Assembly: GCA_016931895.1 (NCBI GenBank)
Contig: JAFGDY010000288.1
Location: 1 to 41,912, forward strand
Source: Anaerolineae bacterium
GTDB lineage: Bacteria > Chloroflexota > Anaerolineae > 4572-78 > J111
Direction: 5' to 3'
DNA: 41,912 nt
The notes under the pieces: generated by a model
Told to the model about the DNA's origin: nothing
Databases searched by the model: none
What the model saw: the letters and a program-made list of their open reading frames with translations, nothing else
Made by a program: the position numbers and the translations under genes
In this document: positions 18,225 through 34,056 of the stretch, piece by piece
How the letters are laid out: each line of letters begins with the position of its first letter
How positions within the stretch are numbered: the stretch's first letter is position 1

Positions 18225-20531
18225 CTAAGTTTCAACAAACTTAACAATGTCTTTCTCTGCATGGGCCGGTTCCTGTTCCAACACCGGCAGAGAAAAACTA
18301 AAGGTACTGCCCTGGTTCAGTTTGCTTTGCATCCAGATTTTTCCCTGGTGAGCCTTAATAATGGCCTTGCTCATGTATAAACCTAGGCCGGCCCCACTTA
18401 CTTCAAAAGTGCTCTCTTCATGGATGGCCCTGAAGAAGCGGGTAAAAAGAAACCGCTGGTTCTCTTCAGAGATGCCTACGCCGGTATCTTTTACGTCAAC
18501 CTGAACCTGACCATCTTTTGACTCTACCCAAACCTCCACGCTGCCGCCCGGCAACGTGTAATTGTAAGCATTGTTGAGCAGATTATGCATCACCTGGGTC
18601 AATCTGCTCCAATCACCTTCAATCCAGATAGGCTCATCAGGCACATGGATGCTGAAGGCCAGGTTTTTCTTTTCCATTTGCGCGGCCCATTGTTCGGCCT
18701 CGGTTTGCACAATTTCCACCAGGTCTTCTGTTTCCTGGTCAATGCCTAACGTGCCGGCGTCAATTTGCGATAGGTCTAGCATTTGCTGGATGATATTGAG
18801 CAGGTCGGTTACATTTTGTTCGATGGCCGTAATAAAGCTTAACTCGCGCTCGTCCAATTTTTTGGAGGCCGTCATCTTCAATAAATCGTTGTAGCCTTTG
18901 ATAGCGGTGGGCGGGGTTCTGAGTTCGTGCGACATGCTGGTGATGAAGTCGTCCTTGAGTTTTTCGGCTTCAACTTCGCGGGTAATGTCGCGCAGCACCA
19001 CCACCGACCCCAACCGCTCGCCATCTGAAGTGACCACCGGCGCGGAGAGGGCGCTCAAAAATCGGCGTTCTATTTCAAAACGGCGCGACTCGTGGAAGTC
19101 AAGACCGGTCAAATGATTGAGCAATTCTAACGATTGTTCTTTACCCGGTTGGTATGCTTGACTTGTAACCCCATTCTCTTGAAGTTGAAAATAGGCAAAA
19201 TCGCCGCCGATGGCCTCAAAAATTCCTTCAGCCGCAGGATTGATGGTGATAATATTGCCCTCTAAATCTTGCACAATTACCCCATCAGCAATACTGTTAA
19301 GAATAGCGTTGAGTTTACCGGCTTCTTCCCGCAACGCGGCCGTTTTTCTTTGCAGTTCGGCCGTCATATTGTCAAAGGTGCTGGCCAGAGAGCCAATCTC
19401 GTCTTTGCCTTTGAGGCCGGTGCGCTGGTCCAGATTACCTTTGGCAATCTCTTGCGAGGTCTGCACCAGGCGAATGATGGGCCGGATAATCCGTTGGGAA
19501 ACGGCGTAACCAATCACCAGCACCGCCACCACCCCGCCGGAAAAGATAATAGACAGGAACAGACGGTTTTGGTTGTTGGTGTCGGTAATGAAATTGGTAG
19601 AGAGGGCTACGGCATAAATGCCGTAGATCCGGTCCCGCAGTTTAAAAGGCGCAAAAGCCAAACGATAATTTTGCCCGCGCGCTTCTACTCCCGGTTCAGC
19701 CGGGGCGCCTGTATCCTCTATATCCTCCAGCAGCGTCACTTCTCCGCCCTGGTCAATCACCTGTTGAAACCGTTCCGGGGTGAGAGCTTGTGACAACTTT
19801 TCCCGGTCGGCCTCAGTGGTCACCAGGGTGGAGATGATGACATTGCCTTTGTCGTCAAACAGAGTGATTTCGGCCAGGGCCAGATCACGAATGGCCTCAA
19901 CTTCTTTTTTTAGGTAGGTGCCCACCAGCACGGCCCCAATGGTTTTTCCGTCCATTTTGACCGGGCCAACGGTGTAAACAATCCGTTCATTTGAGGTGGG
20001 GTCTATGGCCAGTTGCACCTCTTTGAGGTTGCCTTTAGGATCAGACAAAACGCGGGCCACCGCTTGCCAGTTGAAGAAGTCTGCCCCGCTGCCCAGATAA
20101 GTTTGGGCGGGGGCGTTGGGCGACACCGCTTCCCGCTGCAAACGCAGCACTTCCTTACCCTGGGTATCCAGCAGCACAATGCTGTCAATATCGGCGGCAT
20201 TGGCGATGATGGGCGAGACCAGGTTGTCAAGCTCTTCAAATCTGCGATCAACCAGGGCCTGGGGCACGCCAATGGTATTGGCTACGGCCCGTTCCACTTC
20301 CAGGCGCAGTTCTTCTCGATTGACGATCTCATCGCTCACAATCCGCCCGGCATCAAGCAACTGGTTGCGGAAACGCTCTTCAAAACTGCCGGCCACCAGT
20401 TGGGTGACCACAAACGTGCCAAATGCAGCCAACACCAACGTTAGCAAAGCATAGGGGATGATAATTCTATGTCGAATGCTGGACGAGAAAAATCTTGATC
20501 CCGCGCTCAGCCACTGGAGCGGACTCTTCAT
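18225..20531 (-). CDS. Membrane sensor histidine kinase (HAMP-PAS-HisKA-HATPase)
   Basis: 768 residues. TM1 is at about 23-46. A large extracellular Cache-like sensor region extends to about 323, and TM2 is at 324-344. HAMP (345-398), PAS (about 405-515), HisKA with His535 in SMSHELRTPPTAIKGY, and HATPase_c with HNLLNNAYNYT, DVKDTGVGI and GAGLGLYMS follow. It would autophosphorylate on His535 in response to an outside or PAS ligand and pass phosphate to a response regulator. None is encoded nearby, so it is an orphan. The second Pro in HELRTPPTAI replaces the usual Leu of the X-region but all ATP-binding boxes look intact. ATG at 20531; ribosome site weak. Divergent from mnmE. Confidence 0.93.
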   Translation of the reverse strand: MKSPLQWLSAGSRFFSSSIRHRIIIPYALLTLVLAAFGTFVVTQLVAGSFEERFRNQLLDAGRIVSDEIVNREELRLEVERAVANTIGVPQALVDRRFEELDNLVSPIIANAADIDSIVLLDTQGKEVLRLQREAVSPNAPAQTYLGSGADFFNWQAVARVLSDPKGNLKEVQLAIDPTSNERIVYTVGPVKMDGKTIGAVLVGTYLKKEVEAIRDLALAEITLFDDKGNVIISTLVTTEADREKLSQALTPERFQQVIDQGGEVTLLEDIEDTGAPAEPGVEARGQNYRLAFAPFKLRDRIYGIYAVALSTNFITDTNNQNRLFLSIIFSGGVVAVLVIGYAVSQRIIRPIIRLVQTSQEIAKGNLDQRTGLKGKDEIGSLASTFDNMTAELQRKTAALREEAGKLNAILNSIADGVIVQDLEGNIITINPAAEGIFEAIGGDFAYFQLQENGVTSQAYQPGKEQSLELLNHLTGLDFHESRRFEIERRFLSALSAPVVTSDGERLGSVVVLRDITREVEAEKLKDDFITSMSHELRTPPTAIKGYNDLLKMTASKKLDERELSFITAIEQNVTDLLNIIQQMLDLSQIDAGTLGIDQETEDLVEIVQTEAEQWAAQMEKKNLAFSIHVPDEPIWIEGDWSRLTQVMHNLLNNAYNYTLPGGSVEVWVESKDGQVQVDVKDTGVGISEENQRFLFTRFFRAIHEESTFEVSGAGLGLYMSKAIIKAHQGKIWMQSKLNQGSTFSFSLPVLEQEPAHAEKDIVKFVET

Positions 20532-26858: not shown

Positions 26859-28919
26859 ATGGACTTAACCGGAACCTCCATTGGTCAGTATCACGTTATC
26901 GAGCAACTCGGACACGGGGGTATGGCGACCGTCTACAAGGCTCGCCAGCCCAGCCTGGATCGTTACGTAGCCATTAAAGTGCTAAAGGCCGATCTGGCCC
27001 ACGCCGAAGGCTTTGTGGCCCGCTTTGAACGCGAAGCCAGAACCATCGCCCGGTTGCGCCATCGTAACATTCTGACCATTTTTGATTACGGGCACGAGCA
27101 GGACCTGTTTTACCTGGTGATGGAGTACGTTGGCGGAGGCACGCTCAAAGAGCGACTCGGCTGGCCCCAGGACCTGGGCTATGCGGTAAATATGATCTCC
27201 CAAATGGGCAATGCCCTGGCGCATGCCCACCGGCTGGGGATGATTCACCGGGATGTCAAACCGGCCAATATTTTGCTGGTTGAAGAAGACTGGCCTTTGC
27301 TGTCCGATTTTGGGCTGGCCAAGATGGTGCAGGACACGCTGCAATTGACCATGAGCGGGGCCAGCGTGGGCACGCCACAATATATGTCGCCCGAACAGGC
27401 TCAGAGTTTTCCGGTTGACCAACGCAGCGATATTTATTCCTTGGGGGTGGTATTGTATGAGGCCGTTACCGGGCAGCCCCCCTTTGGCCTGGACAGTCCC
27501 ATGGCCGTGGTCCTCAAACACATCAGCGACCCCGTGACCCCGCCCTGCAAATTGCGCTCCGATTTACCCAATGAAATAGAGCGCGTTATTCTCAAGGCTC
27601 TGGCTAAAGACCCGGCCAACCGCTACCAGCGGATGGAAGATTTTGTGACCGATCTACAAAAGGCGGCCAATCTCAACCTGCTCCAGCCGGGCGGCATGCC
27701 CATTAGCCCCAGGGATCCCCCTCTAAATTATGAACCCGTTTCAACCCCAAGCACGCCTTCCCGTCGCCTCCGCCAGCGAAAGTCGCGGTGGGTAAAGGTG
27801 GTTATGAGATTCTTGCTGTTGGTAGGCTTTGGGCTGATCGCTCTCTTGCTTTTTCGGGATTCGCTGTTGCCCCTGGTAGCCCCTCTTATTGAAGAAACCG
27901 CCTCCACTATGTCTGCCGACCTGTTGGCCGGCGTGATCACTCCTTCAGCCGCCGAAGCTACCCCTTTGGAAACATTACCCGTCCCAACGGCCACAGAGCC
28001 TGAGGCCATAACCACCGATCCCCCTCCAACCGCTACCTTTCTCCCCTCACCGGAGTTGACGCCAACCCCAATGCCAACGGCTACGGCGCTCGCGCCTTTG
28101 CCTACACCCACTCCCCCGGCCACGCCAACAGCGCCGCCGCAGCCAACCGTCCAAACGCAAATCTGGCCGGCCGACGGCGCAGAAATGGTCTTTGTGCCCG
28201 CCGGAGGTTTTTTGATGGGCAGCAATGATTTGGGCGATGATGAGCGGCCTATCCACCCGGTTTACCTGGATGATTTTTGGCTGGATAGATATGAAGTGAC
28301 CAACGAACGTTTTGCCCGTTTTGTGGATGCCACCGCTTATCAAACAGAAGCCGAGCAGGCCGGTTGGGGCTGGGTGCGCATCGGTGATGAATGGGAAGAG
28401 GTCAGCGGCGCCGACTGGCGCCACCCGCGCGGCCCCAACAGCAATATTGAGGGCCTTATGGACCACCCTGCGGTTTTGATGAGTTGGAACGACGCCGACG
28501 CCTACTGTGATTGGGCCGGCAAACAATTGCCCACCGAAGCCCAATGGGAAAAGGCCGCTCGCGGCCCGGCTGGTTATGCTTATGCCTGGGGCAACGAGTT
28601 TGACTCAACCAAAGCCAATATCAAAGAGACAGGGCTGAATAATACCACCCCGGTGGGTGCTTTTTCCCCACAAGGAGACAGCGCCTACGGCGCGGCCGAT
28701 ATTACCGGCAATGTGTGGGAATGGGTGGCGGACTGGTACGGCAGCGCTTACTACAGCCAGTCGCCATCGGCTAATCCGCCGGGGCCGGATAGTGGCGCGT
28801 ACAAAGTGTTGCGGGGCGGCTCGTGGCTCTTTGACTCGGTTTACGCCCGTACAGCCTTTCGTTACAATGTAAGGCCCGATTACACTTACGATTTTACGGG
28901 ATTTCGTTGCAGCCGGTAA
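26859..28919 (+). CDS. Membrane Ser/Thr protein kinase with extracellular FGE-like domain
   Basis: 686 residues. The PknB-type kinase domain (about 10-270) has the glycine loop LGHGGMATVY, Lys40 in VAIKVLKA, HRDVKPANILL with catalytic Asp132, DFGLAK with Asp150 and GTPQYMSPEQA, so it should be active. A basic stretch (RRLRQRKSRWVK) precedes one TM helix at about 310-331, then a Pro/Thr stalk (about 370-430) and an FGE-sulfatase (SUMF1-like) domain at 440-684 outside the cell. In the formylglycine-generating enzyme motif GGSx-x-C...C, the two copper-binding cysteines are replaced by Phe658 and Ala663, so the domain is probably a non-catalytic binding module. ATG 26859 follows AAGGGG. The VWA-SIR2 gene begins 86 bases later. 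Confidence 0.92.
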   Translation: MDLTGTSIGQYHVIEQLGHGGMATVYKARQPSLDRYVAIKVLKADLAHAEGFVARFEREARTIARLRHRNILTIFDYGHEQDLFYLVMEYVGGGTLKERLGWPQDLGYAVNMISQMGNALAHAHRLGMIHRDVKPANILLVEEDWPLLSDFGLAKMVQDTLQLTMSGASVGTPQYMSPEQAQSFPVDQRSDIYSLGVVLYEAVTGQPPFGLDSPMAVVLKHISDPVTPPCKLRSDLPNEIERVILKALAKDPANRYQRMEDFVTDLQKAANLNLLQPGGMPISPRDPPLNYEPVSTPSTPSRRLRQRKSRWVKVVMRFLLLVGFGLIALLLFRDSLLPLVAPLIEETASTMSADLLAGVITPSAAEATPLETLPVPTATEPEAITTDPPPTATFLPSPELTPTPMPTATALAPLPTPTPPATPTAPPQPTVQTQIWPADGAEMVFVPAGGFLMGSNDLGDDERPIHPVYLDDFWLDRYEVTNERFARFVDATAYQTEAEQAGWGWVRIGDEWEEVSGADWRHPRGPNSNIEGLMDHPAVLMSWNDADAYCDWAGKQLPTEAQWEKAARGPAGYAYAWGNEFDSTKANIKETGLNNTTPVGAFSPQGDSAYGAADITGNVWEWVADWYGSAYYSQSPSANPPGPDSGAYKVLRGGSWLFDSVYARTAFRYNVRPDYTYDFTGFRCSR

Positions 28920-29005
28920 TCCCTGAAAATAGAATGCAAGAAATCAACTTTACCCTTACTGTAAACCACCCATTTAATCATCAATAAATTGTAGAGGAGA
29001 AAATA

Positions 29006-31801
29006 ATGAAAACCTCACTCTGGCCTGACAAGCTCTTTCTCGCTATCATCCTGATTCTGGTGAGCGTACTTTTTCCCTTACCCGCCCATGGCCAGGACCA
29101 AAACGACGCCCGGCAGCAACGGGCCGTGCCCGGCCTGGACGTGATTATCCTGGTTGACGAGTCGGAGACAATGTGGAATAAAACCGATACCGAGGGCGTC
29201 AGAGTCAACACGGTTAATTATTTTATTGACGTGCTCACCTCTGAGCAATCCGGGGCCACGCACCGGGTGGGCCTGGTTGCTTTTGGCACGGAGCCTCAAG
29301 TGATCCCCTATACCACGCTCGACACTCCCGCCGCCGCCACGACCCTCAAAGAGAGGTACGCGGCCATCCACCGGGGCATTGACGCGCACCATGATAAAGA
29401 GTATACCGACCTCAACCTGGCCCTCCAAGCGGCCCTGGATATGATGACCCAGGATAGCGACCCCACCCGCAAATCTGCCCTTATCCTCATCTCCGACGGT
29501 CAGCCCACCAACCGCCAGACCGGCGAGAAAAAGGGCGAGGAAACGGTTGCAACCTACTTGCAGGAAACGCGCCGCTTGCTGGGGCAGTTGCAGGGATATC
29601 CTTACCTGGCCAATGTTTGCGCCAGCCCCAACGGCGCGCCGCTGTATATGATTGGCATGGGCGTGGACAAACTGGTGGAGTCGTCCAGCCCGGAATATAT
29701 TGAACTCTACCGGGAGTTTTGGCAGGAGGGCGCGGCCAGGGCCGGCGGCTACTACAAAGAGGCAGAGAAAATACAGGAAATGCAGGGCATCAGCACCTAC
29801 ATCTTCTCGGAGTTGCTCTGCACCCCGGCTACGCCCTCGCTGGGCGTGCGCTCGCCCCAGGTGCTTGAATACCAGGTTTACGATAGTTATTTTCAAATTT
29901 TCTTCACCATTTCCGGCAAAGAAAACCCGAAAGTGGCGGCCAAAGTTTACCGGCCCCAGCCGGACGGCAGCAAAGGAACCGTGCCCCTAAACAAAGGCGA
30001 AGAAGGCATTAGTTGGCAAGGCGGCGTGGATTATGAGGTGTGGGGCGTAAAAATTTCGGAGCCTTGGGCCGGCACCTGGCAGGTAGCCCTGGAGGGCGAG
30101 GGTCGGGCCGAGTTTAGTTATGTTTTCTTCCCTAACGTATCCATTGGCCTGGTTGAGCCGGGCAACAACTTTATCCCGGTGGATAAGCCCTTTACCGTTC
30201 GGGCCAAAATTATGGATGAAAACGGCCAGGTGGTTGACGTGCCGGTCAAGGATTTTCAGGTAGAAATAGAGGGGGAAAACTTTAGAAAACAGGTTGGCCT
30301 GGAAAAAGATGGCGATACCTTTGTGGTTGAGCTTGATCCGCTTACGGAAAAAGGTGAATACTCGTTGACCTTCCACACCTTGCTGCCGGACGGCACGCCT
30401 CTTTACGAGCACAAGTGGGTCACGCTGATTTCTGCGCCCTGGGTTGAAGTGACCGAACCGGGCCGGCAGGCCTCGTTTGTGCCCACCGAGCCTATTCCCC
30501 TGGCCGCCGGCGTGCACCTGGCCGGGGCGATCTCTTTTGAAGACACCAAACTGGTGGCCACGCTGTTGAAAGATGGCATCCCGGTCCAGAGCATCGAAAT
30601 GAGTCGTGGCGAAACCACCAGCCAGGGCGACGAGAACGTGGTGGCCTACACCGGCGATTTCCCACTGGTTGAAGAAAGCGGCAATTATGAAGTCCAGGTG
30701 AAATTGATGGCCATTCTACCCGGCGGACGGGTATTTGACCATGAAACTGCGCCGCTGCCTTTATCTGTTTTGCTGCCGCCAACGGCTACGCCGCTGCCTA
30801 CGCCTACGCCAACTTTTACACCCACGCCAGTCCCGCCTACTCCCACCCCTACGGCCACTTCCACCCCTATGCCCACACCCACGCCCACCCTTACGCCTAC
30901 GCCGGTTCCGTTTTTGGTGGCCGCCGCCCGCTCGTCGTGGTGCTGGCCGGGGCTGCTGCTTTTACTGTTACTGGCGGCGCTGATTGCGGTGCTGGCCGGA
31001 TATTGGCGCAAGCGACGTCGCGGGGATGTGCCGGAAAAGATAAAATTATTGGCCGAATTGATGCAGTCCCGTTTGCAAAGTGGCGAGGCACCTTACGTGC
31101 TGGTGTTGGGCAGCGGCCCGGCGGTGAGCCTGGGCAGCCAGTCAATGCAATACGTGGTTCAAGGCGTGGCCGGCACCGCGGATTTGGAAAAGTTTTATAA
31201 AACGCTCGACAGCCTGAGCGCCATGGAACGCTACGTGATTTTGAAGAAATATTTTGGCGAAGCCGATCTCTCGTCGGGCTACCGCTACCTGGCCGAGCTG
31301 GTCAAAAAAGGTTTTTTCAATGTCATCCTCACCACCAATCTTGACCCCTTTGTGGAAGATTCCCTGGCCGAGCATAAAATAAGAGGCGTGGACGTATTGG
31401 TGTGCGGCGAGCAGCGCAACGGCGAAACAATGGATTTGCCTACCAATCCGCAGGCTCAAGTAAGAGTGATCAAATTGCACGGCGATGTTGAAGCTCGCGC
31501 CTTTGCTTTTACCCCCAGCGAGATCACGGTTTTTGGCAACGACAGTGAACGAATTTTACGCCACTATCTCAGCCGCGACGTGATCATTATTGGCCACGGC
31601 CCGCGCGATTACGATATCAACCGGGCCATTGAGCGCGAAGGCGGCTCGGTTTGGTACGTGGGCCAAGACGCCCCGGCCTCGGACGACCCCGTGTACCACG
31701 CCATGCGCGCCCGCCGCACCCAGGCCAACGTGATTACGGGCGATTTTGGCTGGTTTGACCCATTTTTTGATGCGTTGTATGAAGAGTTGATGCGTTCTTA
31801 A
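29006..31801 (+). CDS. VWA domain / transmembrane / cytosolic SIR2-like fusion protein
   Basis: 931 residues. A signal peptide (about 1-29, ending PLPAHG) leads to a von Willebrand A domain (about 45-235) with MIDAS-type DESET (D51, S53, T55) and LISDGQPTN. Beta-rich regions follow to about 595, then a Pro/Thr stalk (about 595-640) and a TM helix at about 648-668. WRKRRRGD after the helix puts the C-terminus inside. The C-terminal 240 residues are a SIR2-like fold: LVLGSGPAVSLGSQ, TTNLDPFVEDSL with Asn778 and KLHGD with His825, the residues expected for NAD cleavage in this superfamily. Such domains are NADases in ThsA and DSR defence proteins. VWA plus SIR2 across a membrane is not an architecture I know. 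ATG follows AGAGGAG. Confidence 0.88.
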   Translation: MKTSLWPDKLFLAIILILVSVLFPLPAHGQDQNDARQQRAVPGLDVIILVDESETMWNKTDTEGVRVNTVNYFIDVLTSEQSGATHRVGLVAFGTEPQVIPYTTLDTPAAATTLKERYAAIHRGIDAHHDKEYTDLNLALQAALDMMTQDSDPTRKSALILISDGQPTNRQTGEKKGEETVATYLQETRRLLGQLQGYPYLANVCASPNGAPLYMIGMGVDKLVESSSPEYIELYREFWQEGAARAGGYYKEAEKIQEMQGISTYIFSELLCTPATPSLGVRSPQVLEYQVYDSYFQIFFTISGKENPKVAAKVYRPQPDGSKGTVPLNKGEEGISWQGGVDYEVWGVKISEPWAGTWQVALEGEGRAEFSYVFFPNVSIGLVEPGNNFIPVDKPFTVRAKIMDENGQVVDVPVKDFQVEIEGENFRKQVGLEKDGDTFVVELDPLTEKGEYSLTFHTLLPDGTPLYEHKWVTLISAPWVEVTEPGRQASFVPTEPIPLAAGVHLAGAISFEDTKLVATLLKDGIPVQSIEMSRGETTSQGDENVVAYTGDFPLVEESGNYEVQVKLMAILPGGRVFDHETAPLPLSVLLPPTATPLPTPTPTFTPTPVPPTPTPTATSTPMPTPTPTLTPTPVPFLVAAARSSWCWPGLLLLLLLAALIAVLAGYWRKRRRGDVPEKIKLLAELMQSRLQSGEAPYVLVLGSGPAVSLGSQSMQYVVQGVAGTADLEKFYKTLDSLSAMERYVILKKYFGEADLSSGYRYLAELVKKGFFNVILTTNLDPFVEDSLAEHKIRGVDVLVCGEQRNGETMDLPTNPQAQVRVIKLHGDVEARAFAFTPSEITVFGNDSERILRHYLSRDVIIIGHGPRDYDINRAIEREGGSVWYVGQDAPASDDPVYHAMRARRTQANVITGDFGWFDPFFDALYEELMRS

Positions 31802-31808
31802 GGACTAT

Positions 31809-32813
31809 ATGAAAACATCTCCACAACTTCCCGGTTGTATAATGGCTGCGGCCATTGTGATGGGGCTTTCCGCTATTCCTCCCGCAATAAAGGGAGGGTT
31901 AGTGTTAATGTCCTTTCGTGCCGAAGATGAGGCCATCAGTGAGCTAATAGTGCTTTTGGCTTTTTATTGGGGCGATGTTATCCTCTCACTTGTGCTTGCT
32001 TGGGGTTTATGGCATTTAAAAAATTGGGCACGCATTATGGTCATTGTGGTGTTAAGTTTAGCAATACTAGCCGGTTTTGCAGCAGGTGGCTTTGCCGGAA
32101 TAGCTATGTTGGCCTTATTGGGATATGTTGTTTATTGGTTTGCATCAAACGGAGAATATTTTACTCTTTCCAAAACAGGTGTTCCCGGAGAAAAACCTGG
32201 CAACCATATTAAGTCAACAGGAGGAACTGAAGTGGCAGAACACCCTGATGCGCGTACTTTTGCCGCCGGCATAACTATTGTTATTGGAATCTTGGTTATT
32301 TTAAGTGGACTTCAGTCGTTATTAGGAGACGCAAATGCGTTTGGCTTCTACTGTAATATACCCGCAGGGATCGCGCTTATTTTTGTGGGATGGATCATCA
32401 AGCCAAAAGATCGGCCTGGCAGGGGGGCTACTGTAGTTTCAAAGAATGATGAATTGTTATCCCAAAATAGCAATCCTGTAACAGATACTTCTCCAGCGTT
32501 ATCCGTTGGTGCGGCTATGGTAGATGCCGGCCAGCAGGGTGTGGTCAAAAACGCTAAAATAAAAGTGTGGAAAAGATATGCGGATGGGGGAGAAAACGCC
32601 AAAGTTGCGGAGGATCAGGCGTTCAATCAAGATCCTGTTCCAGTGAAAATTATCAAGATGGGAGAAGATGAGGCCAACACTTCTGAATGTTTAGATGTGT
32701 TTTATTGTCCGTGGTGTCATAAAGCCTATCAAGTGGATCAAGGGATTACTCAAGAAGCAAATGTTATATTTCGGTGTATAAAATGTAATAAGTCAGTAGT
32801 TTTGCATTTTTAA
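31809..32813 (+). CDS. Multi-pass membrane protein with C-terminal zinc ribbon
   Basis: 334 residues of unknown family. About four helices lie in the first 110 residues and two more around 150-195. A low-complexity cytosolic region follows, and the protein ends with CPWCHKAY...CIKCNKSVV, a CxxC-x18-20-CxxC zinc ribbon at about 302-328. It starts seven bases after the VWA-SIR2 stop, with AGGA as part of the ribosome site, so the two are almost certainly co-transcribed. The ribbon may bind the SIR2 or kinase domain, or nucleic acid; this is inference. The gene is visibly richer in A+T than its neighbours. Confidence 0.7.
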   Translation: MKTSPQLPGCIMAAAIVMGLSAIPPAIKGGLVLMSFRAEDEAISELIVLLAFYWGDVILSLVLAWGLWHLKNWARIMVIVVLSLAILAGFAAGGFAGIAMLALLGYVVYWFASNGEYFTLSKTGVPGEKPGNHIKSTGGTEVAEHPDARTFAAGITIVIGILVILSGLQSLLGDANAFGFYCNIPAGIALIFVGWIIKPKDRPGRGATVVSKNDELLSQNSNPVTDTSPALSVGAAMVDAGQQGVVKNAKIKVWKRYADGGENAKVAEDQAFNQDPVPVKIIKMGEDEANTSECLDVFYCPWCHKAYQVDQGITQEANVIFRCIKCNKSVVLHF

Positions 32814-33351: not shown

Positions 33352-34056
33352 ATGGAGGAGGTTAACGTCTTTGCCCCACTCAATATGGAGGCAGTCGTCG
33401 TTCTGGCGGCGGCCATTGTGGCCGGGATAGTGCTGGCCTTTACTTTATTCGCTCCCTTTGATCGCCTTTTTACCACCATTCATGAGTTAGGTCATGTTTT
33501 TGCCGCTATACTCACCGGGGGTGAAGTGAAGGGCTTTGAAGTCCACTTTAGAAGCAAAGGCAGCCAGAAAGGGGTAACAAATTTTGAGAAGGGAGACCCT
33601 CATTATATCATTCCGGCAGGGTATATGGCCACCGCAATTTTCACCACAGGATTGACCTTGGTGAGTGGCTTGCCGTACCTTGCGCCTTACGCTGTGAGTT
33701 TTTTAGGTATTTTGTTGATTTTTAGCGTTTTGCGTCATGGCCGATCTCTATCAACGGCAATTATCGGGCTGGCCTTGGGCACCGGATTCATTTGGGTGGC
33801 CTGGAATAGTGCATTGATCTGGTCAGTCTTTTTACTTTACTTACTCGCTGTCATAGGCATAGTGGTAGCTATTCGTGACTCGCGGACAATAACCCACCTG
33901 GCCCGCTTTGATCCCGCAGGTATCCACGATGCCGCTCAAATGGCCAAACTCACCGGCCGGTCGGCAAAATTTTGGGCTGCCGCCTGGTCCATCACAACGT
34001 TTTTGATGATAGCCGTAGCTCTCTGGTTTACCTGGCTGCGTCATTTATCCGCGTGA
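33352..34056 (+). CDS. M50B-like membrane metalloprotease homologue
   Basis: 234 residues with about six membrane helices. HELGH (H44, E45, H48) in FTTIHELGHVFAAILTGGEVKGFEVHF is the zinc motif of M50B-type intramembrane proteases, and the following TGG...V.GFE matches that family's strand region. A third ligand is not obvious. Site-2-type proteases often release regulators from the membrane, so a target among the neighbouring membrane proteins is possible but unproven. ATG 33352 lies just after ATTAGGT. The 3' end overlaps the convergent GNAT gene by 12 bases. The M50-like protein at 2833 is a second, only distantly similar HExxH membrane protein. Confidence 0.75.
   Translation: MEEVNVFAPLNMEAVVVLAAAIVAGIVLAFTLFAPFDRLFTTIHELGHVFAAILTGGEVKGFEVHFRSKGSQKGVTNFEKGDPHYIIPAGYMATAIFTTGLTLVSGLPYLAPYAVSFLGILLIFSVLRHGRSLSTAIIGLALGTGFIWVAWNSALIWSVFLLYLLAVIGIVVAIRDSRTITHLARFDPAGIHDAAQMAKLTGRSAKFWAAAWSITTFLMIAVALWFTWLRHLSA

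What the first reader, a model, noticed from the sequence alone, without database searches (positions are those of the whole stretch)
26859..32813. Candidate membrane signalling or conflict system: kinase-FGE-like, VWA-SIR2, zinc-ribbon
Three consecutive plus-strand genes. The first two have the same plan in opposite order: outer sensor, Pro/Thr stalk, single helix, cytosolic enzyme (kinase; SIR2-like). The third follows by seven bases and adds a membrane zinc ribbon. Known: SIR2-like domains act as NADases in anti-phage proteins, and kinase plus VWA modules occur in multi-part conflict systems. Inference: an outside signal bound by VWA or the FGE-like domain could switch kinase and NAD-consuming outputs.
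Basis: partly seen in the sequence, partly recalled or inferred. Interest (0 to 1): 0.8.

Follow-up and report, generated by a model that had tools for sequence, protein, structure and literature searches.

The report
Membrane SIR2 receptor paired with kinase

Summary
The three genes are real and laid out as described. Genes 1 and 2 form a conserved pair: kinase-TM-stalk-FGE-like, and signal peptide-VWA-beta domains-stalk-TM-SIR2 (TM, one transmembrane helix). Full-length orthologues are adjacent in a sister species and in another family of the class, in different surroundings. In a fourth genome VWA-SIR2 is at a contig edge and no kinase-FGE orthologue was found. The zinc-ribbon gene occurs in 1 of 100 genomes and is missing at the sister locus, so it is not part of the system. 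The SIR2 domain keeps the Asn and His needed for NAD cleavage in SPARSA, lacks the zinc module of deacylases, and models closest to anti-phage SIR2 proteins. The FGE-like domain lacks both catalytic cysteines, so it is probably a binding domain. In related genomes the same SIR2 type is fused to or encoded beside NTPases, trypsin and TPR domains, and a related VWA receptor carries a helical tail shared with free SIR2, TIR and CHAT proteins. Best reading: a surface receptor whose output is NAD cleavage, tuned by the partner kinase. Ligand, NADase activity and phage role are untested. All ectodomains are under purifying selection, which argues against an arms-race sensor.

The parts
26859..28919 (+). 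Gene 1: Ser/Thr kinase - TM - Pro/Thr stalk - FGE-like domain (686 aa)
   Evidence: orthologues 73% (G001) and 68% (G071) next to VWA-SIR2
26889..27629 (+). Protein kinase domain (aa 11-257), cytosolic; K40, D132 (HRD) and D150 (DFG) present
   Evidence: Pfam PF00069 E=3e-49; residues read from the sequence, invariant in A2
27798..27854 (+). TM helix of gene 1 (aa 314-332)
   Evidence: hydropathy and charge
28179..28913 (+). FGE-like (C-type-lectin fold) domain (aa 441-685), predicted outside; human FGE Cys336/Cys341 positions are A663/T665
   Evidence: Pfam PF03781 E=6e-69; alignment to 1y1e
29006..31801 (+). Gene 2: signal peptide - VWA - beta-rich domains - Pro/Thr stalk - TM - SIR2 (931 aa)
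   Evidence: orthologues in 3 further genomes
29141..29503 (+). VWA domain core (aa 46-166), MIDAS-type residues D51-x-S53-x-T55, T134, D164 invariant
   Evidence: Pfam PF13519 E=1e-9; A1
29858..30769 (+). Beta-rich extracytoplasmic region (aa 285-588), no Pfam match
   Evidence: secondary structure of a low-confidence model, mean pLDDT 58
30776..30907 (+). Pro/Thr stalk (aa 591-634)
   Evidence: sequence
30941..30997 (+). TM helix of gene 2 (aa 646-664)
31043..31798 (+). SIR2 domain (aa 680-931), cytosolic; N778 (TTN), H825 (KLHGD), D868 (RDxDIN)
   Evidence: Pfam PF13289 E=1e-8; Foldseek and VIA-align; profile match to SPARSA Sir2 E=3e-8
31809..32813 (+). Gene 3: TM protein with CPWC/CIKC zinc ribbon; lineage-specific orphan, NOT part of the conserved pair
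   Evidence: 1 of 100 genomes; absent in the sister locus

Best explanation
Genes 1 and 2 encode a two-component cell-surface receptor. VWA-SIR2 displays a metal-dependent VWA and beta-rich ectodomain on a stalk, and a change outside (ligand, envelope damage or contact) clusters or reorients the molecules so that the cytosolic SIR2 domains become active NAD+ hydrolases, lowering NAD and arresting or killing the cell. The partner kinase, with an FGE-like binding domain outside, senses the same or a second cue and sets the threshold by phosphorylating VWA-SIR2 or a shared target. Shown here: domains, topology, conserved pairing, catalytic residues, purifying selection. Inferred: NADase activity, activation by clustering, cross-talk with the kinase, cell-death outcome.
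For: Pair conserved with one-to-one full-length orthologues in the same genus (73%) and in another family of the class (67-68%), in different surroundings. The kinase-FGE orthologue stands out: each genome has 20-45 kinase or FGE matches, and the next best are partial at 61% or less. N778 and H825 align with SPARSA N142 and H186, whose alanine mutants lose NADase (PMC10781750), and H825 with KomC H146. Only one Cys in the SIR2 domain, so no zinc module, as in the SIR2_2 NADases (PMC12700824). Foldseek top hits are DSR2, ThsA, KomC and SPARSA; VIA-align Z 13.2 to SPARSA. The same SIR2 type in related genomes is fused to AAA-wHTH, trypsin or TPR, or is encoded beside AAA/NACHT-like NTPase and TPR proteins. 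A paralogous VWA receptor lacking SIR2 (L022) ends in a tail 44% identical to the tail of a free SIR2 protein (pairwise E=2e-13), i.e. the split form of the fused window protein.
Against: No biochemistry. The gene pair is not in a defence island: the neighbours are housekeeping genes (RuvA, RuvC, YebC, MnmE). VWA-SIR2 is not found in plasmid records and its SIR2 domain is not found in phage records. The ectodomains are about as conserved as the enzymes (68-78% identity, dN/dS about 0.08-0.2) and diverge about as much as MnmE, unlike a typical fast-evolving immune sensor. In G036 no kinase-FGE lies in the 260 bp upstream of VWA-SIR2 and no full-length orthologue was found. SIR2 model pLDDT is only 69.
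Confidence: 0.48

Rival explanations
1. Envelope-homeostasis signalling: the SIR2 domain uses NAD without killing (ADP-ribosylation, a nucleotide signal, or an NAD-sensing regulatory domain), and the kinase and VWA-SIR2 report cell-wall or adhesion state as an ordinary physiological switch.
For: Strong purifying selection on all domains, including both ectodomains; housekeeping neighbourhood; divergence like MnmE; distant VWA receptors of this family end in FHA-like domains in operons with PP2C-like, kinase and tubulin-like genes, which looks like regulation rather than killing.
Against: The SIR2 type belongs with NADases and lacks the zinc module of deacylases (PMC12700824). Its nearest relatives are fused to or encoded beside conflict-type modules. 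Distribution is patchy: 4 of 396 genomes of the class.
Confidence: 0.27
2. A surface-acting anti-phage system: the VWA or FGE-like domain detects adsorbing phage and SIR2 depletes NAD (abortive infection).
For: SIR2 relatives DSR2, ThsA, SPARSA and KomC are anti-phage; patchy distribution; FGE-like domains are proposed invader sensors in multicellular bacteria (PMC8195603, PMC10907252).
Against: Not in a defence island; ectodomains conserved rather than diversifying; no reverse transcriptase in the window's genome, so no diversity-generating retroelement acts on the FGE domain; the studied anti-phage SIR2 proteins named here sense inside the cell (established knowledge).
Confidence: 0.15
3. 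Two independent proteins that merely share an operon; the kinase does not act on VWA-SIR2.
For: In G036 VWA-SIR2 has no recognisable kinase-FGE next to it, and a VWA receptor paralogue in G071 (L022) stands without a kinase. Linkers and stalk of the kinase gene are poorly conserved (39-45%).
Against: Adjacent in the same order in two unrelated genomic contexts although each genome holds dozens of kinase/FGE paralogues. Distant VWA receptors also sit near kinase genes.
Confidence: 0.08
4. Three-part system including the zinc-ribbon membrane protein.
For: Seven-base gap on the same strand, probably co-transcribed.
Against: No relative in 100 genomes, including the sister species and both f15 species; VWA-SIR2 is followed directly by the M50B gene in the sister locus.
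Confidence: 0.02

Closest known systems
SIR2_2 NADases of anti-phage systems: SPARSA (GsSir2/Ago), ThsA (Thoeris), DSR2, KomC
   Same: SIR2 fold, catalytic Asn-His pair, no zinc-binding module; best structural and profile matches.
   Different: Those proteins are cytosolic and activated by intracellular cues (established knowledge); here SIR2 hangs on the inner end of a single-pass membrane protein with a VWA ectodomain. Sequence identity is only 11-18%.
Conflict systems of multicellular prokaryotes with vWA, FGS (FGE-like), kinase and effector-associated domains (Kaur et al. 2020, PMC7159879; 2021, PMC8195603)
   Same: Same parts list: vWA, FGE-like lectin fold, S/T kinase, SIR2 effector, adaptor tails, STAND NTPases in related genomes; found in a Chloroflexota lineage.
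   Different: No MoxR/VMAP, STAND or GAP1 core in the pair; vWA and FGE-like domains are predicted outside the cell; SIR2 is fused directly to a VWA receptor. In the passages read, SIR2 is named once, as an effector in the EAD10 (GreA/B-C - PIN) system.
Kinase + VWA + PP2C modules (kinase often with zinc ribbon) described in GAP1-N2 neighbourhoods (PMC7159879)
   Same: Kinase gene next to a VWA gene.
   Different: No PP2C gene beside the pair; the zinc ribbon here is a separate, non-conserved gene; the VWA is an ectodomain of a fused SIR2 receptor. Distant VWA receptors in families f6/f31 (L070-L074) look closer to such modules.
Death receptors of animals (TNFR1, FAS) - analogy only
   Same: Outside sensor, single TM, death-linked output inside; paralogue L022 uses a small helical tail like an adaptor.
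   Different: No homology of the ectodomain is claimed; here the enzyme is fused directly.

Membership tests
SIR2_2 (SIRim-like) NADase family | Significant match to the family profile | tested here: met
   Pfam SIR2_2 E=1.2e-8, 35.6 bits against a cut-off of 24.5
SIR2_2 (SIRim-like) NADase family | Catalytic Asn and His | tested here: met
   N778 and H825 align with SPARSA N142/H186 and are invariant in 4 orthologues (PMC10781750)
SIR2_2 (SIRim-like) NADase family | No zinc-binding module | tested here: met
   one Cys in aa 680-931
SIR2_2 (SIRim-like) NADase family | NAD+ hydrolysis | not testable with these tools
   needs an enzyme assay
Canonical sirtuin deacylase | CxxC...CxxC zinc module | tested here: not met
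   sequence
Formylglycine-generating enzyme | Two catalytic (copper-binding) cysteines, human C336/C341 | tested here: not met
   A663 and T665 at these positions; no Cys there in the orthologues either
Hanks-type Ser/Thr kinase | Complete catalytic motifs (VAIK Lys, HRD Asp, DFG Asp) | tested here: met
   K40, D132, D150, invariant
Metal-binding VWA domain | MIDAS DxSxS/T, Thr, Asp | tested here: met
   D51-S53-T55, T134, D164 invariant; metal binding itself not tested
MoxR-vWA ternary conflict system (VMAP type) | MoxR AAA+ ATPase and VMAP partners encoded next to the vWA gene | tested here: not met
   neighbours of the pair are a methyltransferase, the orphan gene and M50B
EAD-coupled conflict system | Adaptor domain shared by receptor and effector | tested here: not met
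   the window protein is a direct fusion with no tail; the shared tail exists in the paralogue L022 and in free SIR2 proteins of G071/G036
Diversity-generating-retroelement target | Reverse transcriptase in the genome | tested here: not met
   no RVT_1 match in G000

The most novel reading that the evidence does not exclude
A bacterial cell-surface death receptor: a single-pass protein that senses outside through a VWA ectodomain and carries a SIR2 NADase as its own cytosolic executioner, gated by a co-encoded transmembrane kinase with an FGE-like ectodomain. It would be one member of a modular set in which the same VWA receptor type carries SIR2, an adaptor tail, or an FHA-like domain.
Probability: 0.33. 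Interest if true: 0.75.

Novelty: new variant of a known kind. Interest (0 to 1): 0.52.

Why it matters
The bacterial SIR2 NADases studied so far are, to my knowledge, switched on by cues inside the cell. A conserved receptor that joins an outside-facing VWA domain to a SIR2 NADase would mean some Anaerolineae (many of them filamentous and community-dwelling) can decide life or death from surface cues, much as animal death receptors do. The domain-swap series (VWA-SIR2, VWA-adaptor tail plus free SIR2, VWA-FHA-like) gives a ready experimental ladder for how outside sensing is coupled to NAD loss.

Tried and rejected
Zinc-ribbon gene as third member: rejected. FGE-like domain as an active formylglycine-generating enzyme: rejected, both cysteines missing. 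DGR-diversified FGE sensor: rejected for this genome. SIR2 as a canonical deacylase: unlikely, no zinc module. Mobile-element carriage: no plasmid match for VWA-SIR2 and no phage match for its SIR2 domain. Ectodomain fold: the model was too poor (pLDDT 58, pTM 0.35) to search. Promoters and terminators: counts within about 1.6 sd of shuffles, so not informative. The shared tail has no Pfam family, so its EAD-like nature is an inference from its fusions. Literature searches for a VWA-TM-SIR2 protein found none, in an incomplete library.

Full report
WHAT IS THERE. The window is a contig of a 6.06-Mb, 97% complete genome; orthologue records are titled Anaerolineae/Anaerolineales MAGs. Gene 1 (26859-28919) encodes a Hanks-type kinase with complete catalytic motifs, one TM helix with seven net positive charges on the kinase side, a Pro/Thr stalk and an FGE-like domain. 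Gene 2 (29006-31801) encodes a signal-peptide-like N-terminus, a VWA domain with complete MIDAS-type residues, about 300 residues of beta-rich sequence, a Pro/Thr stalk, one TM helix followed by WRKRRR, and a SIR2 domain. Gene 3 (31809-32813) is a small TM protein with a CPWC/CIKC zinc ribbon.

WHAT IS CONSERVED. A search of 100 related genomes found full-length VWA-SIR2 in G001 (same genus, 73%), G071 and G036 (another family of the class, 67-68%). In searches of 396 genomes of the class only these four genomes had it. The kinase-FGE gene lies immediately upstream in G001 and G071. It is a clear one-to-one orthologue: the full-length matches are 73% and 68%, whereas the dozens of other kinase or FGE genes in these genomes match only in part at 61% or less. 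Everything else around the pair differs between the window and G071. In G036, VWA-SIR2 sits near a contig end; the 260 bases upstream hold no FGE end and no full-length orthologue was found elsewhere in that assembly, so the pairing is 3 of 4. The zinc-ribbon gene is absent from G001, where VWA-SIR2 is followed by the M50B gene that follows gene 3 in the window, and it has no relative in 100 genomes. The conserved unit is therefore the pair.

SELECTION. Between the window and its orthologues, approximate dN/dS is about 0.08-0.2 in the kinase, FGE-like, VWA and beta domains and about 0.13 in SIR2 versus G001 (synonymous sites are near saturation in the more distant pairs). The FGE-like ectodomain is 78% identical in both comparisons, as conserved as the kinase. 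MnmE, as a housekeeping yardstick, is 84% and 63-65% identical in the same comparisons. Both sensors probably recognise something constant.

THE SIR2 DOMAIN. It matches Pfam SIR2_2. Profile search of PDB sequences gives SPARSA Sir2 (E=3e-8), KomC and ThsA. N778 and H825 align with SPARSA N142 and H186 (residue numbers counted on the alignment), whose alanine mutants lose NADase activity (PMC10781750); H825 also aligns with KomC H146, the residue mutated in PDB 9xvc. There is a single cysteine, hence no zinc module; its absence is typical of SIR2_2 proteins, and the module is required for deacetylation by canonical sirtuins (PMC12700824). A model with mean pLDDT 69 and pTM 0.77 matches DSR2, ThsA, KomC and SPARSA first by Foldseek and SPARSA first by VIA-align (Z 13.2, 208 residues, 3.9 A), though many sirtuins score within two Z units. 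A NADase is the likeliest reading but is not shown.

THE FGE-LIKE DOMAIN. It is closest to true FGE by sequence, but the two cysteines that make FGE an enzyme (human C336/C341, from established knowledge) are A663 and T665 and are absent from the orthologues too. It is likelier a ligand-binding C-type-lectin-fold domain. Such domains are proposed invader sensors in conflict systems, sometimes diversified by retroelements (PMC8195603, PMC10907252). No reverse transcriptase was found in this genome.

THE MODULAR FAMILY. In G036 and G071 the same SIR2 type is fused to AAA-wHTH, trypsin-like, TPR or unassigned domains. In another Chloroflexota family (f76) more distant members flank AAA/NACHT-like NTPase and TPR genes. 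A paralogue of the VWA receptor in G071 (L022:3595-6057, minus strand) has the same ectodomain and TM but no SIR2; instead it ends in a roughly 50-residue helical tail that is 44% identical to the tail of a free SIR2 protein from the same genus. That tail also occurs on AAA/STAND, TIR-FGE, CHAT-TPR, kinase and beta-propeller proteins and has no Pfam family. By the logic used for effector-associated domains (PMC7159879) it is a candidate adaptor, and the window protein is the fused form of the same receptor-effector link. More distant VWA receptors in other families carry FHA-like tails in operons with kinase, PP2C-like, FHA-like and tubulin-like genes (these annotations were read from sequence, not profile-tested).

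MECHANISM. Most likely: ligand or damage outside, clustering of VWA-SIR2, NAD+ hydrolysis inside, growth arrest or death, with the partner kinase setting the threshold. Domains, topology, pairing, catalytic residues and selection are shown; activity, clustering, phosphorylation and outcome are inferred. Clustering is chosen because the related ThsA, Avs5 and FAM118 sirtuins need filament formation for activity (PMC12700824). The constancy of the ectodomains and the housekeeping neighbourhood make a general envelope or contact cue at least as plausible as phage recognition.

NOVELTY. Every part is known from conflict systems of multicellular bacteria (PMC7159879, PMC8195603). No description of a VWA-TM-SIR2 receptor with a kinase-FGE partner was found in the open library searched. 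I rate it a new variant of a known kind.

Noticed in passing
L022:3595-6057 (-), L027:3193-4314 (-), L026:13998-15263 (-), L089, L093, L090, L100, L086, L094, L101: A roughly 50-residue helical tail (NLxxLEExxAxYGxxxPLxLxNEID) is shared by a VWA receptor and by SIR2, AAA/STAND, TIR-FGE, CHAT-TPR, kinase and beta-propeller proteins; no Pfam family, candidate unregistered adaptor.
   Followed up: partly
L142:4460-13251, L145:3600-12142, L143:3-8313: In Chloroflexota family f76 a recurrent gene set pairs two or three SIR2 proteins with an AAA/NACHT-like NTPase and a larger TPR/NTPase protein; in L145 one SIR2 protein also carries a PNP_UDP_1 (nucleoside phosphorylase) domain.
   Followed up: partly
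L028:9556-11376 (-), L029:1537-3552 (-): SIR2 paralogues with a lost glycine motif (LGSSLSL) and TLN instead of TTN; L028 also has KLRGD instead of KLHGD: possible inactive NADases.
   Followed up: no
L070-L074: Distant VWA receptors with FHA-like cytosolic tails in operons with kinase, PP2C-like, FHA-like and two tubulin-like genes (families f6, f31).
   Followed up: partly
window 33352-34056: An M50B-like membrane peptidase gene (HELGH motif) follows the locus here and directly follows VWA-SIR2 in G001, but not in G071.
   Followed up: no
L100:1489-3159 (own genome, contig C274): A protein of the same genome combining the helical tail, a TIR domain, a Pro/Thr-rich stretch, SH3_3 and an FGE-like domain: a TIR counterpart in the same genome.
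   Followed up: no
window 18225-20531 (-): A dCache-HAMP-PAS-HisKA sensor histidine kinase in the same contig, apparently unrelated.
   Followed up: no
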